Origin: Bryobacterales bacterium KBS 96
Lineage (GTDB): Bacteria; Acidobacteriota; Terriglobia; Bryobacterales; Bryobacteraceae
NCBI GenBank assembly: GCA_000381625.1
Contig: KB906767.1
Coordinates: 1,094,629 to 1,158,628 of the forward strand
Length of the DNA stretch: 64,000 nucleotides
Reading direction: 5' to 3'
Below the pieces are notes generated by a model. It worked only from the letters and a program-made list of their open reading frames with translations. It was not told the origin of the DNA and made no database searches. The position numbers and the translations under genes are program-made. Positions 5,110-15,682 of this stretch are shown one piece after another (position 1 is the stretch's first letter; each line of letters opens with the position of its first letter).

Positions 5110-6504
5110 ATGGAATCGAATGCAGGGGAACCCACTTTGAATAACGCAGCGGCACAAACGGCAGGCGCCGTGGGCAGCAGCGCCTATGTCTACCTGGCGG
5201 CCATTGTCGCCGCGACCTCGGGGCTGCTGTTCGGCTTCGATATTGCCGTCATCAATGGCGCAATCATCTTTCTTCGATCTGAACTGCACCTGAACGATGT
5301 GCAAACGGAGTTCGCGGTCAGCGCTCTCTTGTTCGGCTGCATTTTCGGCGCGAGTTTCGCCGGCTGGCTTAGCGACCGGATCGGCAGGCGGCGCGTGCTG
5401 ATGATGGCGGCCGCTCTGTTTGCCTTGTCCGCGCTCGGCGCTGCTATTCCGAGAACTCTGACGGAGTTTGTTGCCGCGCGGGTAGCCGGCGGACTGGCGA
5501 TCGGCGCGGCCTCGGTGCTTGCGCCGTTGTACATCGCCGAAGTCGCTCCTGCAAAGATTCGCGGACGGCTGGTGGCTATGAACCAGATGGCAATTGTGAG
5601 CGGCATTCTTCTGGCGTATCTTGCCAACTGGCTGCTGGCGTTCACGGGGCCGTCGAGCTGGAGATGGATGTTTGCCGTCGCCGCCGTGCCCTCAGCCGCG
5701 TTCCTGATTGGGCTTTTCTTCGTTCCCGAGAGCCCGCGATGGCTGGTTGAAAACGACCGCGGCGAAGAAGCGCATACGGTTTTGTCGCGGATCAACGGCC
5801 CGGTTGTCGCCGCCGCCGAGCTGCACGATATCCAGCAAGCCGTCGCGGAAGAATCCGGATCTCTCGCCGAGTTGTTCCGCAAGGGCTTGCGCCGCCCGCT
5901 GTTTATCGCGGTGTCGCTCGCGATTCTGCAGCAGATCACCGGCATCAATACGGTTTTGTTCTACGGATCGATTATCTTCAAAGACCAGGTACACAGCGCC
6001 AGCTCATCGTCGGCGATGTTCGCCAATGTCATTGTGGGGCTTGTCAACTTCGGCGCGACTATCGTGGCGCTCGGCACAATCGATAAGCTCGGCAGGCGTC
6101 CGCTGTTGATGCTTTCTTCGGGAGCGATGGCGCTTTGCGAAGTAGGACTGGCGGTAGCGTTTCTAGGCCACCCTCCGTCCGCGATGTTCGTACTCGCGAT
6201 GATGCTATTGTGCGTCGCCGCTTTCGCTATTGGGCTCGGACCGGGAGTCTGGGTCCTGATCGCCGAAATCTTTCCTACGCGCATTCGCGGGAGAGCCATG
6301 TCGATTGCGACGGTCTGGCTTTGGATCGCCTGCACGGTGCTCACCATGACGTTCCTCTCACTGGCGAATGCAGTTACGCCCACGGGCGCGTTCCTGATTT
6401 ATGCGGCAATGTGCGTTGTGACGTTTCTGATTGTCTGGCTCGCGGTTCCGGAAACCAGGGGCAAGAGCCTGGAACAAATCGAGCGGCTTTGGTCGAAAGA
6501 GTAG
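5110..6504 (+). CDS. MFS sugar porter (XylE/GalP type)
   Basis: A 464-residue, 12-helix sugar:proton symporter of the major facilitator superfamily. Family signatures are present: LFGFDIAVINGA in helix 1, DRIGRRRVL after helix 2, PESPRWL before the central loop, QQITGINTVLFY in helix 7, GRRPLLML in the second half, and PETRGKSLEQIE at the C-terminus. QQ-TG-N in helix 7 is the hexose-binding pattern. It acts in the inner membrane and probably imports a hexose or pentose. ATG 5110 lacks a strong Shine-Dalgarno; an in-frame TTG at 5137 preceded by AGGGGA is an alternative. It stands alone upstream of an inverted repeat. Confidence 0.93.
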   Translation: MESNAGEPTLNNAAAQTAGAVGSSAYVYLAAIVAATSGLLFGFDIAVINGAIIFLRSELHLNDVQTEFAVSALLFGCIFGASFAGWLSDRIGRRRVLMMAAALFALSALGAAIPRTLTEFVAARVAGGLAIGAASVLAPLYIAEVAPAKIRGRLVAMNQMAIVSGILLAYLANWLLAFTGPSSWRWMFAVAAVPSAAFLIGLFFVPESPRWLVENDRGEEAHTVLSRINGPVVAAAELHDIQQAVAEESGSLAELFRKGLRRPLFIAVSLAILQQITGINTVLFYGSIIFKDQVHSASSSSAMFANVIVGLVNFGATIVALGTIDKLGRRPLLMLSSGAMALCEVGLAVAFLGHPPSAMFVLAMMLLCVAAFAIGLGPGVWVLIAEIFPTRIRGRAMSIATVWLWIACTVLTMTFLSLANAVTPTGAFLIYAAMCVVTFLIVWLAVPETRGKSLEQIERLWSKE

Positions 6505-9785: not shown

Positions 9786-10844
9786 CTACAAGGAATTGCT
9801 TGTAAGTGAATGAAATCGCGAGGATTCGAGGACTTCCGGGCCGTTCGCTCCAGGTTTAACGATCAGCGCGGCAACGCCCGGTTTCGAATCGATGAACTGC
9901 ATTCCTCGCGTTGCGCCGATGACGCTGACCGCCGTTGCGAGTCCGTCGGCTTCAATCCCGTGCCGGGCTACAATCGTCACCGTGATGCCTTTGGTAAGCC
10001 CCACATCGGTTTTCGGATCGACGATGTGGGAATACCGTTTGCCGCCTGCATCCAAGTGCTGTTCCGTGTCGCCGGACGTCGATACTGCCGCGTTACTCAA
10101 GTGCAAAACACGCGTGAATGGCGCGTTTGCGCGATCGAACGAGTCAATGCCAATACTCCAGCCAGGCCGGCCGGGAGGCGCGTTACTGAAAGCCAGGTCG
10201 CCGCTGGCGGCAACCAGGGCGCTTTGAATACCAAGCCGCCCCAGCACCTTAAGGGCTTCGTCCGCCGCGTAGCCTTTCGCGATGCCACCCACGTCCAGTT
10301 CCATGCCAGCATCGTCCAACTCCACCGTGCTTGCAACCGGATCGACGTGCAGCTTGCGATATCCGCAGTTGGCGGACGCCCGAGCAAGCTCCGCGGTATC
10401 CGGTACGCGGCCGTCCTTGCGGGCCTGCCGCCAGAGATGAATCACCGGACCTAACGTGATGTCAAACTCGCCGCCCGTCTCGGCGGCGAGCTGCTCAGAT
10501 GCGATGAGAACCCGCAACAGATCGCCGGAGACCTTTACCGGGCGTCCGACCGCGCTTTTGCAGATTCGATTCAATTCGCTCGCGGGCTTGTAGTCGGACA
10601 ATGTGTCGTCCAAGGAAGCGACACGATCGAAAGCCGCGCGAAACGCATGTTCAGCCGTGGCTGCATCGGGCGCGTAGAGCTTGATGCGGAATAGCGTGCC
10701 CATATGGGGCTCCACTGCCTCGTAGGGCTTAAGAGCCGCCGTGTTCGACGAGTCCGCTGGAGCGGCGCCGAGGCAAGCGGCAAAGCTGCAGACCAAGGCT
10801 CGAATCGCAATTTTTTGAAAACGGTTACTGCTCGTCGTGCTCAA
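9786..10844 (-). CDS. apbE: FAD:protein FMN transferase (ApbE)
   Basis: A 352-residue exported enzyme that attaches FMN to Thr/Ser of partner flavoproteins. The signal peptide (ALVCSFAACLGAAPA) is followed by the ApbE core: PHMGTLFRIKLYA, LNRICKSA, ETGGEFDITLGPVIHLWR, DVGGIAKGYAADEA (flavin and metal binding) and YSHIVDPKT with a later EADGLATAVSV. The start is TTG 10844, 20 nt inside the end of the preceding gene, so translation is coupled. This makes it the third gene of an operon with the oxidoreductase and the cytochrome/FGE-like fusion. I see no FMN-acceptor motif (Asp-x-x-Ser/Thr-Gly-Ala-Ser/Thr) in those two neighbours, so its target may be elsewhere. Confidence 0.92.
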   Translation of the reverse strand: MSTTSSNRFQKIAIRALVCSFAACLGAAPADSSNTAALKPYEAVEPHMGTLFRIKLYAPDAATAEHAFRAAFDRVASLDDTLSDYKPASELNRICKSAVGRPVKVSGDLLRVLIASEQLAAETGGEFDITLGPVIHLWRQARKDGRVPDTAELARASANCGYRKLHVDPVASTVELDDAGMELDVGGIAKGYAADEALKVLGRLGIQSALVAASGDLAFSNAPPGRPGWSIGIDSFDRANAPFTRVLHLSNAAVSTSGDTEQHLDAGGKRYSHIVDPKTDVGLTKGITVTIVARHGIEADGLATAVSVIGATRGMQFIDSKPGVAALIVKPGANGPEVLESSRFHSLTSNSL

Positions 10845-12207
10845 CGCCGTTGTTCCAATATTTGTACATCTCTTCGGCGCTCGGAACGTTGGCCGGGCGA
10901 ATCAGCCGGAAGCCCAGCCACTGCGCATCGGTTTCATACCAGATGCTTTTCGGCAATTGGGGATCCTGTTGCTTCCACGAAGGATCGGATGCAACACGCG
11001 CGGCGCAGCGAAGCATGTCGGCGGGATCGTTCCAGGAGCCACCGCGCGCGGTCTGTGGATAGGGCGTGGTGGATTTCACCCACGGGTTGACCTCAGGTCC
11101 CGGCTTGTACGGCTCGTATTGATCGAGCGTCCACTCCATGACGTTACCCAGCATGTCGTAAAGCCCCCATGGATTCGGCTTCTTTGTGGCTACTTTCTGA
11201 TATTTACCGCCGCTGTTCGTTGCGTACCACGCGTAATCTCCGAGCTGTTTCGGATCGCTGCCGTAATAATAAGGCGTCGTTGTGCCGGCGCGGCACGCAT
11301 ACTCCCATTCGGCTTCCGTGGGCAGGCGATAAAATTCTCCCGTCTTCGCGCTCAACCACTCGGCGTATTTGTTGGCCGCATGCTGCGTCATGCTAATGGC
11401 CGGAAATCCATTGATGCCCATGCCGAAGCTCATCTCGACATAAGGCTTGGTCGGGCGGCTAACGGCGTCGACGACGTCGTCCTTGTGCGCCACCTCGCCA
11501 GCCTGATTTTCAAACATGAACAGGCGGTATTCGTCCCACGTGACTTCATGGGCCTGCATCCAGAAACCATCCACGCGTACCTGATGTTGCGGCTGTTCAT
11601 CTTTCTTGTGTTGCGGATCGGAATTGGGAGAACCCATTTCGAAACTGCCCGCGGCAATCGGCACCATGTCATACGAAACCGTTGTATTCGGAATCGTGAC
11701 TTTATAGGGCGCCGCTTTGGCCGATACCTGTTCCCGTTGATGGGCCAGGATGCGGTCCCGAATCTGCCGGACGTTCTGTTCTTCCGCGTTTTGCGGAGTG
11801 GCCGCCGCTTTGTCGCTAGCCGCCTTCTCAGTGGATGCTTGCGGCGGCTGCAACTTCACATCGGCCGGCCAGGGCGCTCCTTCCGCTATCCAGCGGCCGA
11901 TTGTCGCAATCTGATCCGAGGTGAGTTTCGGCGCTCCAGGCGGCGGCATCAACCCCCTCTTCACGATGTTGTAGAACACGCTCTGATCGGGCTTGCCAGG
12001 GACAATCGAGCGTTGGTCCAGCAGTTTCTGCCGGGAGGTCATTTCCAAATCGGCGTGCGTGCTGCCACCGAAGTGGCACTTGATGCAGTGCTGCTCGAAA
12101 ATAGGAGCGACGTCGGCCTTGAAATCTACTTTGGGGCTCGCTTGCGCGAGCACCAGCGCAGGAAGGAAAAGAGCGGAGGCGATCGGTAGGCAGGAGAAAC
12201 GGTTCAT
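10825..12207 (-). CDS. Secreted heme-c domain fused to sulfatase-modifying-factor (FGE-like) domain
   Basis: A 460-residue protein. ATG 12207 gives a signal peptide (LPIASALFLPALVLAQ); the frame continues far upstream only as overlap with the next gene. Residues 25-110 form a planctomycete-type cytochrome c domain with one heme site (EQHCIKCHFGG) and a Met-rich distal loop (GLMPPPGAPKL). After a linker comes an FGE/SUMF-like fold: MVPIAAGSFEMGS, HEVTWDEYRLFM, RLPTEAEWEYACRAGTTTPY, PWGLYDMLGNVMEW, ARGGSWNDP, LGFRLIRP. True formylglycine generators carry a Cys pair after RG; here Gly-Gly-Ser-Trp is followed later by one Cys (LRCAAR), so it is probably not a sulfatase activator. It overlaps apbE by 20 nt. 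Confidence 0.88.
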   Translation of the reverse strand: MNRFSCLPIASALFLPALVLAQASPKVDFKADVAPIFEQHCIKCHFGGSTHADLEMTSRQKLLDQRSIVPGKPDQSVFYNIVKRGLMPPPGAPKLTSDQIATIGRWIAEGAPWPADVKLQPPQASTEKAASDKAAATPQNAEEQNVRQIRDRILAHQREQVSAKAAPYKVTIPNTTVSYDMVPIAAGSFEMGSPNSDPQHKKDEQPQHQVRVDGFWMQAHEVTWDEYRLFMFENQAGEVAHKDDVVDAVSRPTKPYVEMSFGMGINGFPAISMTQHAANKYAEWLSAKTGEFYRLPTEAEWEYACRAGTTTPYYYGSDPKQLGDYAWYATNSGGKYQKVATKKPNPWGLYDMLGNVMEWTLDQYEPYKPGPEVNPWVKSTTPYPQTARGGSWNDPADMLRCAARVASDPSWKQQDPQLPKSIWYETDAQWLGFRLIRPANVPSAEEMYKYWNNGVEHDEQ

Positions 12208-12235
12208 AGCAATTTTCGGCTCGCGAGAGGCAGAG

Positions 12236-12262
12236 GGAGCCGGCTGTGCGCCAGCCGGCTCC
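12236..12262. other. Perfect GC-rich hairpin in the operon spacer
   Basis: GGAGCCGGCT and AGCCGGCTCC form a perfect 10-bp stem with a 7-nt loop, in the 73-nt gap between the oxidoreductase stop and the cytochrome/FGE-like start. There is no T-tract. It may stabilise or process the mRNA so that the first gene is expressed above the other two. Confidence 0.6.
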
Positions 12263-12280
12263 AGACAGCAAGGACAACGG

Positions 12281-13582
12281 TCAGATGAGTTTTGTGATAC
12301 CCGGTTCGGCGCGCGGGGGTACGGGCAAACTGCCGTTCCAATCCAGGTTATCGGGATACAGCTTCTCTTTCGAATTGAGCGCTTCATCCCATGTGACCTG
12401 CTGGCCCGTATAGGCGGCCATGCGGCCCATGATTGCGAGCAACGTGCTGGTGGCCAGACGTTTGCCATCGTTAATTGGCTGATGCTTGCGGATGGAAGCG
12501 AACAGCAGGTCGTGCTCGCGCTGGTACATGTCGTATTTCTGGCCCGTCCACGTCCAGTTGGTTTTGCCTTCGATCTTCGGTGTTGGGCCGCGGCCAATAG
12601 TGCAAGTCCCATCGGTTCCGAGAATGTAATCGGAATTCTCGTTGTAGCAGCCTACGATCTGCCGGTTTGCAAGGAATGCGCGCACGCCATTCGGGTAGAG
12701 GTAGTTGACCTCGAAATGATCGTAGATGTTACCGCCTTCGGCCGGAATCACACGGCCACCAACGGCCACACAGCTCTCAGGCGGTTCGTCGTGCATCACC
12801 CAGGCGATCTTGTCCGCGCTATGCACGGCCTGCTCGACAAGGCTATCGCCGCAGAGCCAGACGAAGTTGTACCAATTGCGAATTTGCCATTCGGTGTCAC
12901 TCATGCCGGCCGGGCGCTCGCTCGCCGGAGGCATTGGCTTCACCGGATTTGTGTAATACGTGGCGTAATAAGCGACTACCCGGCCGATAGCGCCGTCCTG
13001 CACCTGCTTCACGGTGGCTTCAATCATGTCGTTGTAACGCCAGCAGAAGCCGGCGACCAGCGACAGGTTCTTCGCTCTCGCCTTTTCGGTCGATTCGAGC
13101 ACCCAGCGGATGCCGGTGGGATCGGTCGAAGCCGGCTTCTCGCAAAAGATATGCTTGCCCGCGTCCACGCAGGCGGCCAGCATCGTCGGCCGGAAACCCG
13201 GAGGCGTGGCCAACAGCACTACATCGACGTCGCTGTTAATCACTTTCTGGTAGGCATCCAGTCCGAGAAACTGATTCGGCTGCTCGACCTTTACGCGTTC
13301 CGCGATTTTGCTGATTCGCTTCAGTGTTCCGAGCGAGCGGTCGATATGGGACTGGTCGATATCGGCGACGGCTGTCAGCTCCGCGTAATCGTCCGCGTGA
13401 AGCGCCTGAGACGCGGCGCCTGTTCCGCGGCCTCCACAACCAACCAGTCCAACTTTAATCGCGTTGCTGACGGTTTGGGCGGAGATGATCGCGGGAAAAC
13501 CCGCTGCCAGGGCGACGCCGGCAGCGCCCACTGTGGTTTTGAGAAAGTCGCGGCGATCCGGAGAGAGCGGTGATTCTTTCAT
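12281..13582 (-). CDS. Tat-exported Gfo/Idh/MocA family oxidoreductase
   Basis: A 433-residue protein. The leader PDRRDFLKTTVGAAGVALAA is a textbook twin-arginine signal, so the enzyme is folded with its cofactor before export. The Rossmann part starts at residue 44 (VGLVGCGGRGTGAASQAL), and the family motif HIFCEKPASTDPTG holds the conserved EKP Lys. Members oxidise or epimerise sugars and glycosides with NAD(P), and many in Acidobacteriota and Planctomycetota are exported. The ATG at 13582 has AAAGGAAAG just upstream. It is the first gene of the three-gene operon with the heme/FGE-like protein and ApbE, which makes a periplasmic redox role reasonable; the sugar is unknown. Confidence 0.93.
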   Translation of the reverse strand: MKESPLSPDRRDFLKTTVGAAGVALAAGFPAIISAQTVSNAIKVGLVGCGGRGTGAASQALHADDYAELTAVADIDQSHIDRSLGTLKRISKIAERVKVEQPNQFLGLDAYQKVINSDVDVVLLATPPGFRPTMLAACVDAGKHIFCEKPASTDPTGIRWVLESTEKARAKNLSLVAGFCWRYNDMIEATVKQVQDGAIGRVVAYYATYYTNPVKPMPPASERPAGMSDTEWQIRNWYNFVWLCGDSLVEQAVHSADKIAWVMHDEPPESCVAVGGRVIPAEGGNIYDHFEVNYLYPNGVRAFLANRQIVGCYNENSDYILGTDGTCTIGRGPTPKIEGKTNWTWTGQKYDMYQREHDLLFASIRKHQPINDGKRLATSTLLAIMGRMAAYTGQQVTWDEALNSKEKLYPDNLDWNGSLPVPPRAEPGITKLI

Positions 13583-14108: not shown

Positions 14109-14915
14109 TCATGTTTGTAGCTGCCGTTCCAGCGAACGCAGCCGCGCATCCCGATTGGGGACCAGATTGAACCGGCGGGTCACCTCCGCGCGAGCTTTCC
14201 GCAAGAGTTCGCAATCGAGCGTGTTCAACCGAACCAGGTCGGAGTAGACGCGGGGACCGCACGCTTTCTCCAGTTTCGAGAGACGTAACTGAAGCGCCTC
14301 GTCCAGACCGCCCGAGGCATTCACGGGTGGTACGGCGCACACCATGCCAGGAAACGCCGGGTCCAAAAGATTTTGGCCGCCAACAATGCTCTCGTTGAAG
14401 CGATCGACCACACCGAGCCAAGATGTCTCCAGCATTCGTTTCGTTGCGCGATAGAGATCGGCTTCCGCTGGAGGGTGATCGTAGTCGCCGGCGTTGGCCA
14501 GGAGATTGACCTGTACGTCGTTCACGTGGTGCGGCATTGCCTCGATCACACGGGGAATGAATTCGCCCAAACTCCACGTCTCCGCGAGATCGCTGAGCGG
14601 ATCGCCTGCGCTGGGCTTCTCGCGAAGGTAGTCGTATATAGATCGTATCCGGTCGAGCGGATCGCGGAGGAAGCACAGATCAAAGAACAGGAAGCCTGGC
14701 GCGGCTGGAACGGGATGGCGGAGGTGATGACTTGAAACTGCCTCTATATGGGGATTGTCTTTCAGGTACGAAAGCAGGACATCATTCGATAAACGGCCAT
14801 CGCGGTCCGCGGTATCTAACCTGCACAGGCGTTCGCCAAAATTGCGATCGAGCATATTCTCGATGGTCGAGCCCGCATTCTTGAAGAGGTGGTAATGAAG
14901 AATGACGAAACGCAT
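14109..14915 (-). CDS. Sulfotransferase family protein
   Basis: A 268-residue protein with the two PAPS-binding elements of sulfotransferases: FKNAGSTIENML near the N-terminus (5'-phosphosulfate loop, Lys-x-x-Gly-Ser/Thr) and CFLRDPLDRIRSIYDY around residue 82 (3'-phosphate loop, Arg and Ser). A His-rich segment between them (SHHLRHPVPAAPG) is a possible catalytic site. It would transfer sulfate from PAPS to a carbohydrate or other hydroxyl group. It follows the repeat protein at 14925 by 9 nt, so the two are probably translated from one mRNA. No PAPS-synthesis genes are in the window. Confidence 0.85.
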   Translation of the reverse strand: MRFVILHYHLFKNAGSTIENMLDRNFGERLCRLDTADRDGRLSNDVLLSYLKDNPHIEAVSSHHLRHPVPAAPGFLFFDLCFLRDPLDRIRSIYDYLREKPSAGDPLSDLAETWSLGEFIPRVIEAMPHHVNDVQVNLLANAGDYDHPPAEADLYRATKRMLETSWLGVVDRFNESIVGGQNLLDPAFPGMVCAVPPVNASGGLDEALQLRLSKLEKACGPRVYSDLVRLNTLDCELLRKARAEVTRRFNLVPNRDARLRSLERQLQT

Positions 14916-14924
14916 GGCGTGAGG

Positions 14925-15530
14925 TCAGCCGTGCCGCCCGAATTGGCACATACCCTCCACGGCGGCGTCACTCTGGCGCGCCGTCAAGGCGTAATGCACT
15001 AACGGGTTGATGCGTCGCACCGCAAGGTCGGGATGATAGCGGCGGTAGTGCTCGCAATCGAATAGCAAGTGCGGGCTAATGCAATCTTCGGGTCGGCTTC
15101 GCAGGAAATGCGCCAACGGATTTCCTCCAGACTTCTTTGCCTCCGTACACCGCCTCAGGTAGTAATCGGGCTGAAATAGCGGGTGTGGCTTACGTCCTTC
15201 GGCGGCGCCGTACCGGAGGAAGTGAAGCAACGGGTTCACACCGGTTTTCCGAACATCGGGATAACGTTCCAAGTAGAAAGCGGGGTCGAAGAGTGGATGC
15301 GGCTTGCGACCGTCGAAAGCGCCGGCAACAATGAAGTGCAATAGCGGGCTGATCTTGGCCGCAGACCCGCTATTCGTCGCACGATAAAACTTGCTGTCGA
15401 AAAAGATCGCCGGCATGGCCCCGGCGCGCAGAGGCAAAACCCCAACATAGGGAGCGACCTGAAGAAGCCGCTTCAGCGCCATTACGAAACGGCGCCGCGT
15501 AGTTAACGTCGTGTTCTGCGCTGTGGTCAT
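14925..15530 (-). CDS. Repeat protein of the glycan-biosynthesis type (FYLxxYPDV repeats)
   Basis: About 201 residues from ATG 15530; the frame opens at 15596, but the extra residues do not look like coding sequence. From residue 40 on, a unit of about 45 residues recurs four times (FDPAFYLERYPDVRKTGVNP, then LLHFLRYGAAEGRKPHPLF). Such repeats are known as N-terminal or stand-alone modules beside glycosyltransferases and sulfotransferases in capsule or O-antigen clusters. Their role is not established. It is 9 nt upstream of the sulfotransferase gene on the same strand, which links it to sulfated glycan assembly. No signal peptide is evident. Confidence 0.75.
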   Translation of the reverse strand: MTTAQNTTLTTRRRFVMALKRLLQVAPYVGVLPLRAGAMPAIFFDSKFYRATNSGSAAKISPLLHFIVAGAFDGRKPHPLFDPAFYLERYPDVRKTGVNPLLHFLRYGAAEGRKPHPLFQPDYYLRRCTEAKKSGGNPLAHFLRSRPEDCISPHLLFDCEHYRRYHPDLAVRRINPLVHYALTARQSDAAVEGMCQFGRHG

Positions 15531-15682
15531 GGCAAAAACCGCCGAATCCGCGAGTCCAATTGACGGCGAGCAGCATCTTCGCCTACAAGCCCTCATTTCT
15601 CACTCATTAGTGATAACACGCGCACGCTTATATCAGCCGTCGGAGCGATCCCGGTTCGTAGCACTTTGATATTGAAGTTGGC

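What the first reader, a model, noticed from the sequence alone, without database searches (positions are those of the whole stretch)
9786..13582. Exported oxidoreductase, heme-FGE-like fusion and ApbE in one operon
Three genes in tight order (20-nt overlap, strong internal hairpin) encode a Tat-exported Gfo/Idh enzyme, a secreted cytochrome c fused to an FGE-like fold, and the FMN-attaching enzyme ApbE. No known pathway has this set. One model is a periplasmic sugar-oxidation chain whose electrons pass through the heme domain, with an unidentified flavinylated protein.
Basis: partly seen in the sequence, partly recalled or inferred. Interest (0 to 1): 0.65.

Follow-up and report, generated by a model that had tools for sequence, protein, structure and literature searches.

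The report
Probable new flavin-carrying periplasmic redox module
Three neighbouring genes in a bacterium encode an exported sugar-type dehydrogenase, a heme protein with an unusual fold, and an enzyme that glues flavin onto proteins; the same set recurs in distant bacteria, and the unusual-fold protein is probably what the flavin is glued to.

Summary
On the minus strand lie a Tat-exported Gfo/Idh/MocA protein, a PSCyt1 heme domain fused to an FGE-like (SUMF1-fold) domain, and ApbE. The set is conserved: of 92 loci found through the FGE-like protein, 76 have Gfo/Idh nearby, 53 ApbE, 48 both, in Acidobacteriota and Bacteroidota (FGE-ApbE alone in one Planctomycetota locus), in three gene orders and once as an FGE-ApbE fused frame. 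The linked ApbEs separate from 21 unlinked ApbEs of genomes that hold these loci. The window's genome has two ApbEs but no FMN_bind, DUF2271 or DUF3570, and its one NqrB/RnfD-like hit over cut-off lacks the target motif: an 'orphan apbE' case, for which unidentified substrates are predicted in print. Best explanation: the FGE-like protein is the missing substrate, FMN sitting on a loop D-x-x-[ST]-x-P-[TS] (T253 here), and it carries electrons from Gfo/Idh to heme c. Module shown; flavinylation inferred (about 45%); sugar substrate unknown. Against it: the motif has RP where known targets have GA; PvdO, a paralogue with no known ApbE link, shares D-x-x-T-R-P; 22 loci with room keep FGE-Gfo/Idh without an adjacent ApbE.

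The parts
12281..13582 (-). Tat-exported Gfo/Idh/MocA oxidoreductase (433 aa)
   Evidence: R10-R11, G48-x-G-G-R-G53 and EKP 148-150 near-invariant over 67 rows including the window's
12236..12262 (-). 11-bp hairpin in the gfo-fusion gap
10825..12207 (-). secreted PSCyt1 heme c - FGE-like fusion protein (460 aa)
   Evidence: AlphaFold mean pLDDT 88.5; nearest solved fold PvdO 5hha
12073..12087 (-). heme c motif CIKCH (residues 41-45)
   Evidence: sequence
10969..11670 (-). FGE-sulfatase (SUMF1-like) domain, residues 180-413
11449..11469 (-). D247-A-V-S-R-P-T253, candidate flavin attachment loop
   Evidence: outside regular secondary structure after residue 247 in the model
9786..10844 (-). ApbE, FAD:protein FMN transferase, linked subfamily (352 aa)
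   Evidence: S257, H273, D300 near-invariant over 46 rows; trees

Best explanation
The genes encode one exported redox module. ApbE takes FAD and attaches FMN to its operon partner, the FGE-like protein, most likely at the hydroxyl residue that is always T or S (T253 here) of the loop D-x-x-[ST]-x-P-[TS]. The Tat-exported Gfo/Idh enzyme, which carries its nicotinamide cofactor out of the cell, oxidises a sugar-like substrate. The covalent FMN takes the two electrons from the bound NAD(P)H and hands them one at a time to heme c of the same protein, or to a separate carrier where the heme domain is missing, and so to the respiratory chain. Shown here: the three families, a Tat signal, the conserved module, the ApbE-FGE pairing, and the absence of a conserved cysteine pair of true FGE. 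Inferred: flavinylation of the FGE-like protein, the residue, and the direction of electron flow.
For: ApbE lies within 3.5 kb of the FGE-like gene in 53 of 92 loci, Gfo/Idh in 76 of 92, both in 48. Gene orders: gfo-FGE-apbE (Bryobacterales), apbE-FGE-gfo (Bacteroidota), apbE divergent from FGE-gfo (L135, L140, L141), and one fused FGE-ApbE frame (L056). In L044, L059 and L088 ApbE and FGE pair without Gfo/Idh although 5 kb or more is held on both sides. Linked ApbEs form one side of a branch against 21 unlinked ones (48 linked rows, 100/96, all of 200 bootstrap trees; SH-aLRT 95 with 54 linked rows). Own genome: 2 ApbE, 0 FMN_bind, 0 DUF2271, 0 DUF3570; its one NqrB/RnfD-like hit over cut-off has no [ST]GA[ST]. 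Motif over 91 readable loci: position 7 is T (63) or S (28) in all 91; position 4 is S/T in 52 of 52 ApbE-adjacent loci and A in 11 of 39 others. Gfo/Idh: no column set gives D-x-x-[ST]-x-x-[ST] in 30% of 67 rows. FGE homologues without the motif: 0 of 8 regions have Gfo/Idh or ApbE matches. A precedent for substrate-ApbE fusion is DUF2271-ApbE (PMC8238504, passages).
Against: Known targets read D-x-x-[ST]-G-A-[ST], and changing G or A lowered flavinylation of one test protein (PMC12052999, passages); here position 5 is R/H/K/T/Q (G in L139, L143) and position 6 is P in all 91. PvdO, not known to me to be flavinylated, has D-x-x-T-R-P-G at this place, so most of the motif may be older than the ApbE link. 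D is missing in L140 and L141 although ApbE is adjacent, though D-to-A had only minor effects in the cited test. 22 of 92 loci with at least 1.5 kb on both sides have Gfo/Idh but no adjacent ApbE, 20 of them still with S/T at position 4. The ApbEs of Belliella buryatensis (one) and Chitinophaga terrae (two) are of unlinked type. The position-4 association is not corrected for kinship and does not stand out among Gfo/Idh-linked loci alone (2 of 17). In the L056 model the loop is below pLDDT 50 and no docking could be measured. Two further candidate substrate families, Flavodoxin_4 and FMN_red with a C-terminal motif (PMC11334425, passages), were not searched here.
Confidence: 0.45

Rival explanations
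1. The FGE-like domain is a PvdO-like oxidoreductase or scaffold partner of Gfo/Idh that carries no flavin; ApbE modifies some other exported protein and is only co-regulated.
For: PvdO is the nearest solved relative by sequence and fold, and I know of no ApbE link of PvdO; PvdO purified from E. coli had no detectable cofactor and was inactive (PMC6206403, passages). FGE-Gfo/Idh occurs without adjacent ApbE in 22 loci with room.
Against: No alternative substrate stands out: no FMN_bind, DUF2271 or DUF3570. Stretches around all 87 motif-pattern hits gave two canonical motifs in frames with a possible signal, one permease-like and one kinase-like by eye, and four with AA for GA (crude signal finder, 1.5-kb flanks, AGY serines missed). 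ApbE-FGE pairs without Gfo/Idh and the L056 fused frame point to FGE.
Confidence: 0.3
2. ApbE flavinylates the Gfo/Idh enzyme, making it a flavo-dehydrogenase.
For: Gfo/Idh is the most frequent neighbour of the FGE-like gene (76 of 92).
Against: No conserved D-x-x-[ST]-x-x-[ST] in 67 aligned Gfo/Idh rows; ApbE occurs with FGE where no Gfo/Idh is near (L044, L059, L088).
Confidence: 0.08
3. The FGE-like domain is a true formylglycine-generating enzyme that activates a sulfatase.
For: Pfam FGE-sulfatase domain.
Against: No Cys column reaches 93% of 81 rows: the best are C305 (70 of 81) and C401 (55 of 81, else mostly S or P). No sulfatase family was among the neighbours that I scanned. The genome has another FGE homologue with a far better Pfam score (293 against 151 bits).
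Confidence: 0.02
4. ApbE acts on the FGE-like protein, but at another residue than T253.
For: The pairing evidence does not depend on the motif.
Against: Position 253 is T or S in 91 of 91 readable loci and has the spacing from D247 of known targets.
Confidence: 0.12

Closest known systems
ApbE-flavinylated extracytosolic electron-transfer systems (FMN_bind, NqrB/RnfD, DUF2271, DUF3570; PMC8238504 and PMC11334425, passages)
   Same: exported ApbE next to an exported protein; single-gene fusions of substrate and ApbE; flavin and cytochrome c used in similar roles
   Different: FMN_bind, DUF2271 and DUF3570 are absent from the window's genome; the candidate substrate has an FGE fold and a motif with RP (or GP) instead of GA; a Gfo/Idh partner. 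The main text of PMC8238504 holds none of the words GFO, formylglycine, sulfatase, Acidobacteri, Planctomycet; its supplements were not open to me.
PvdO, periplasmic FGE-like oxidoreductase of pyoverdine synthesis
   Same: fold, D-x-x-T-R-P in the same loop, possible need for an electron-transport partner
   Different: G, not T/S, at motif position 7; pyoverdine substrate
Formylglycine-generating enzyme / SUMF1
   Same: fold
   Different: no conserved cysteine pair; no sulfatase among the neighbours scanned
Periplasmic 3-keto-glycoside use (LacABC dehydrogenase, DUF1080 hydrolase; PMC9007349, passages)
   Same: exported dehydrogenase, with DUF1080 and TIM-barrel genes near some loci
   Different: Gfo/Idh instead of LacABC; the acceptor would be a flavin-heme protein; a DUF1080 cluster was seen in only 6 of 80 loci

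Membership tests
ApbE (FAD:protein FMN transferase) | Pfam ApbE domain over cut-off | tested here: met
   242 bits, cut-off 25.6
ApbE (FAD:protein FMN transferase) | Ser, His and Asp named for Vc_ApbE (241, 257, 285) | tested here: met
   S257, H273, D300 near-invariant over 46 rows; spacings 16 and 27 against 16 and 28 (residues from PMC12052999). Matched by spacing and context, not by an alignment to Vc_ApbE
ApbE substrate | D-x-x-[ST]-G-A-[ST] | tested here: not met
   FGE-like protein has D-A-V-S-R-P-T; positions 1, 4, 7 fit, 5 and 6 do not
ApbE substrate | genomic pairing with ApbE | tested here: met
   53 of 92 loci
ApbE substrate | covalent FMN on the protein | not testable with these tools
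   needs co-expression and mass spectrometry
Formylglycine-generating enzyme | conserved active-site cysteine pair | tested here: not met
   no Cys column at 93% of 81 rows; that FGE has such a pair is recalled, in line with PDB titles naming C336S and C341S mutants
PvdO | NCBIfam equivalog cut-off (500 bits) | tested here: not met
   105.3 bits
Gfo/Idh/MocA | Rossmann and C-terminal domains over Pfam cut-off, EKP lysine | tested here: met
Gfo/Idh/MocA | substrate and cofactor | not testable with these tools
   no NCBIfam equivalog cut-off reached

The most novel reading that the evidence does not exclude
FGE-fold proteins of this subfamily are a new class of ApbE substrate with a non-canonical attachment loop, so that a covalent flavin links a periplasmic nicotinamide-dependent sugar dehydrogenase to cytochrome c. 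This would name one of the missing substrates of orphan apbE genes and show how exported Gfo/Idh enzymes can dispose of electrons.
Probability: 0.4. Interest if true: 0.75.

Novelty: new variant of a known kind. Interest (0 to 1): 0.62.

Why it matters
Meheust et al. (PMC8238504, passages) report that 4% of genomes in their set (670) still have orphan apbE genes and say that less prevalent substrates remain unidentified. This locus gives a specific, cross-phylum candidate that one co-expression gel can test. An exported nicotinamide-dependent Gfo/Idh enzyme also needs a way to re-oxidise a bound cofactor in the periplasm (my inference); a covalent FMN-heme partner would be one.

Tried and rejected
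Docking by natural fusion: I predicted the L056 FGE-ApbE frame to see whether the loop enters the ApbE site. The loop (D104-T110) has pLDDT under 50 and no coordinates were to be had, so nothing can be said. A large joint alignment put FGE rows on the ApbE half; by trial I chose 37 rows whose identities to L056 were right.

Sulfatase activation was rejected for lack of a conserved cysteine pair. Flavinylation of Gfo/Idh was disfavoured for lack of a motif and because of ApbE-FGE pairs without it. A canonical substrate elsewhere: 87 pattern hits against 65 for the pattern read backwards, followed up in 85 stretches, with the limits named above. Column control: position 250 is joint first of 69 columns in the whole set but unremarkable in the Gfo/Idh-linked subset.

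Paper searches: searches used 'Gfo Idh MocA', a term that finds only 2 papers in the library and so misses the usual spelling with slashes; I replaced them.

Rows dropped: L080 has N over the motif and is left out of motif counts. Six adjacent ApbEs (L022, L044, L052, L053, L055, L057) failed my length or score filter and were put back. In one search two Acidobacteriota rows (L078, L080) were labelled Bacteroidota by my script; this does not touch the linked/unlinked split. L033, which I count with Acidobacteriota, bears the record title Acidimicrobiia. Of 33 matches (one the window's own) I fetched 20 regions: the strongest 12 and eight of the next nine; 8 of the 20 lack the motif and are not among the 92. 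One search kept 80 of 167 relatives, and all 80 were used. Of the 80 loci, 50 were taken to whole genomes; one search covers 22 genomes. The unlinked ApbEs in the trees are 20 stretches that I chose plus the window genome's own second copy.
Full report
What is there. On the minus strand of 9786-13582 lie three genes: gfo (13582-12281), a heme-FGE fusion (12207-10825) and apbE (10844-9786, TTG start, 20-nt overlap). Pfam gives GFO_IDH_MocA, PSCyt1 plus FGE-sulfatase, and ApbE. The Gfo/Idh protein has a Tat signal (NCBIfam over cut-off); the other two have Sec-like signals by eye. The gfo-fusion gap holds an 11-bp hairpin, kept in the nearest relative L009 with two changes to G-U pairs. Downstream lies a SpoIIE-type response regulator; upstream, beyond a 94-aa frame that I did not scan, are two proteins without Pfam matches. 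I take the module to be these three genes.

Is the set real? A scan of genome contigs with the fusion kept the best 80 of 167 relatives, and a search of 119 genomes of the phylum gave 22 genomes with a match, the window's included, from which I took 20 regions. In the 80 loci plus the 12 regions with the motif, Gfo/Idh lies within 3.5 kb of the FGE-like gene in 76 of 92, ApbE in 53, both in 48. The 8 regions whose FGE homologue lacks the motif have neither. The loci with ApbE come from Acidobacteriota and Bacteroidota, plus one Phycisphaeraceae genome (L088). The order differs: gfo-FGE-apbE in Bryobacterales, apbE-FGE-gfo in Chitinophagaceae and Saprospiraceae, divergent apbE in L135, L140 and L141. 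One Terriglobia contig (L056) has FGE and ApbE in one open frame. Different orders argue for function, not mere inheritance of a neighbourhood. Many loci are close relatives, so the counts are not independent events.

ApbE belongs with FGE, more than with Gfo/Idh. L044, L059 and L088 have FGE and ApbE with no Gfo/Idh and 5 kb or more on both sides; L042 and L143 too, but these are cut by a contig end. In L044 and L059 the gene on the other side is a divergent one, hydrolase-like by eye. Conversely, 22 loci with at least 1.5 kb on both sides have FGE-Gfo/Idh without adjacent ApbE: 16 that I count as Acidobacteriota, one Verrucomicrobiota (L041) and five Bacteroidota. FGE is the hub. Linked ApbEs fall on one side of a branch against 21 unlinked ApbEs, all from genomes that hold these loci (48 rows, 100/96, all of 200 bootstrap trees; with all 54 linked rows: SH-aLRT 95). 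The only ApbE of the genomes of L016, L033, L034 and Belliella buryatensis, and both of Chitinophaga terrae, are of the unlinked kind, so FGE-Gfo/Idh can live without a linked ApbE; whether another ApbE serves there is open.

No known substrate. The window's genome has two ApbEs, the second beside hemE by eye, but no FMN_bind, DUF2271 or DUF3570. One NqrB/RnfD-like hit just over the cut-off, beside ASPIC/UnbV-like sequence by eye, lacks [ST]GA[ST]. Flavodoxin_4 and FMN_red, two further candidates in print (PMC11334425, passages), were not searched. Over 50 genomes holding these loci, 49 have ApbE, 19 FMN_bind and 21 DUF2271 over cut-off. Of the 22 genomes (own included) with ApbE but no FMN_bind and no clear DUF2271, 19 also lack DUF3570; two of the 19, G047 and G049, have marginal DUF2271 hits of about 28 bits that I took for chance. 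In G038, G040 and G042 DUF3570 sits beside an unlinked ApbE, which leaves the linked ApbE of G040 and G042 without a known target.

The candidate site. The motif-type FGE-like proteins share D-x-x-[STA]-x-P-[TS]. The known target is D-x-x-[ST]-G-A-[ST], with FMN on the last residue (PMC12052999, passages). Spacing fits; positions 5-6 do not, though L139 and L143 read T-G-P-T. The last position is T in 63 and S in 28 of 91 readable loci; D is missing in three (L063, L140, L141). Position 4 is S/T in 52 of 52 ApbE-adjacent loci and A in 11 of 39 others (Fisher p 3.5e-5, uncorrected for kinship). The A cases fall in about five groups: L029, L033, L060, L063 and an Armatimonadota-type set (L081-L087), the last without Gfo/Idh too. 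Among 69 columns of one residue class in all ApbE-adjacent rows, this one is joint first for outsiders without ApbE (8 of 24), but within Gfo/Idh-linked loci it is 2 of 17 and unremarkable. The one genome of 50 without ApbE (G034, a 2.0-Mb bin, possibly incomplete) has the FGE (L063) that lacks both D and S/T. Against this, PvdO has D-G-D-T-R-P-G there, and L140 and L141 lack D beside ApbE. So D-x-x-T-R-P may serve the fold, and the hydroxyl at position 7 is the distinctive part. Three FGE paralogues of the same genome show no D-x-x-[ST]-x-x-[ST] (L091, L093, L095); the fourth, L094, was not caught by that script.

Structure. The fusion is predicted well (mean pLDDT 88.5, pTM 0.77), with the motif in a stretch of middling confidence (block means 83) that is loop after residue 247. 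Best solved matches are PvdO (TM 0.76 by target), a Treponema denticola protein (0.70) and human FGE (0.68). The L056 fusion is predicted less well (80.1), with the loop below 50, so docking is untested.

Mechanism. Gfo/Idh enzymes bind nicotinamide, and Tat export lets a folded enzyme carry it out (as for glucose-fructose oxidoreductase; recalled). It then needs a hydride acceptor in the periplasm. Covalent FMN can take a hydride and give single electrons to heme c, here fused to the same protein. Where CxxCH is missing (38 of 80 frames, some truncated) a separate carrier must serve. The substrate is open; AP_endonuc_2 barrels and 3-keto-disaccharide hydrolases occur near some loci in both phyla, which fits glycoside oxidation.

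Prior work. In the held open-licence library, ApbE with Gfo gives one paper (a seaweed expression study, listing only), ApbE with formylglycine one (a Methanococcus proteome, listing only), and papers with three of the five terms ApbE, Bryobacter, Solibacter, formylglycine-generating, flavinylat none. One search found 28 papers with two of its terms; the 20 listed hold none of its FGE or planctomycete-cytochrome terms. Preprints, subscription papers and supplements were not searched.

Verdict. A real, conserved redox module; probably a new substrate class for ApbE; one gel away from a test.

Noticed in passing
L127 6774-7811 (own genome C1 about 3947770): A second, distinct ApbE sits next to hemE (by eye); eight of the 20 fetched unlinked ApbEs group with it (L153, L156, L157, L158, L161, L162, L164, L172), several from genomes without FMN_bind, DUF2271 or DUF3570.
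   Followed up: partly
L056 10040-11773: FGE-ApbE single frame with internal deletions in the FGE domain; may be a true fusion, a decayed gene or an assembly join.
   Followed up: partly
L052, L053, L055, L057: Bryobacter-type ApbEs next to FGE match over only about 250 aa and are divergent, perhaps degenerating.
   Followed up: no
L173 (own genome C1:4697340): RnfD/NqrB-like 306-aa membrane protein beside ASPIC/UnbV-like sequence (by eye), without the flavinylation motif.
   Followed up: partly
window 14109-14915 and 14925-15596, minus strand: Two upstream proteins without Pfam matches; the second has repeated HPLFDPxFYL-like units by eye.
   Followed up: no
L064 13158-15062: In this Belliella locus the FGE-Gfo/Idh pair is followed by a TIM-barrel-cluster gene and a GH20 hexosaminidase, hinting at an amino-sugar substrate there.
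   Followed up: no
window 5110-6504: MFS sugar transporter a few kb away; no evidence of a link.
   Followed up: no
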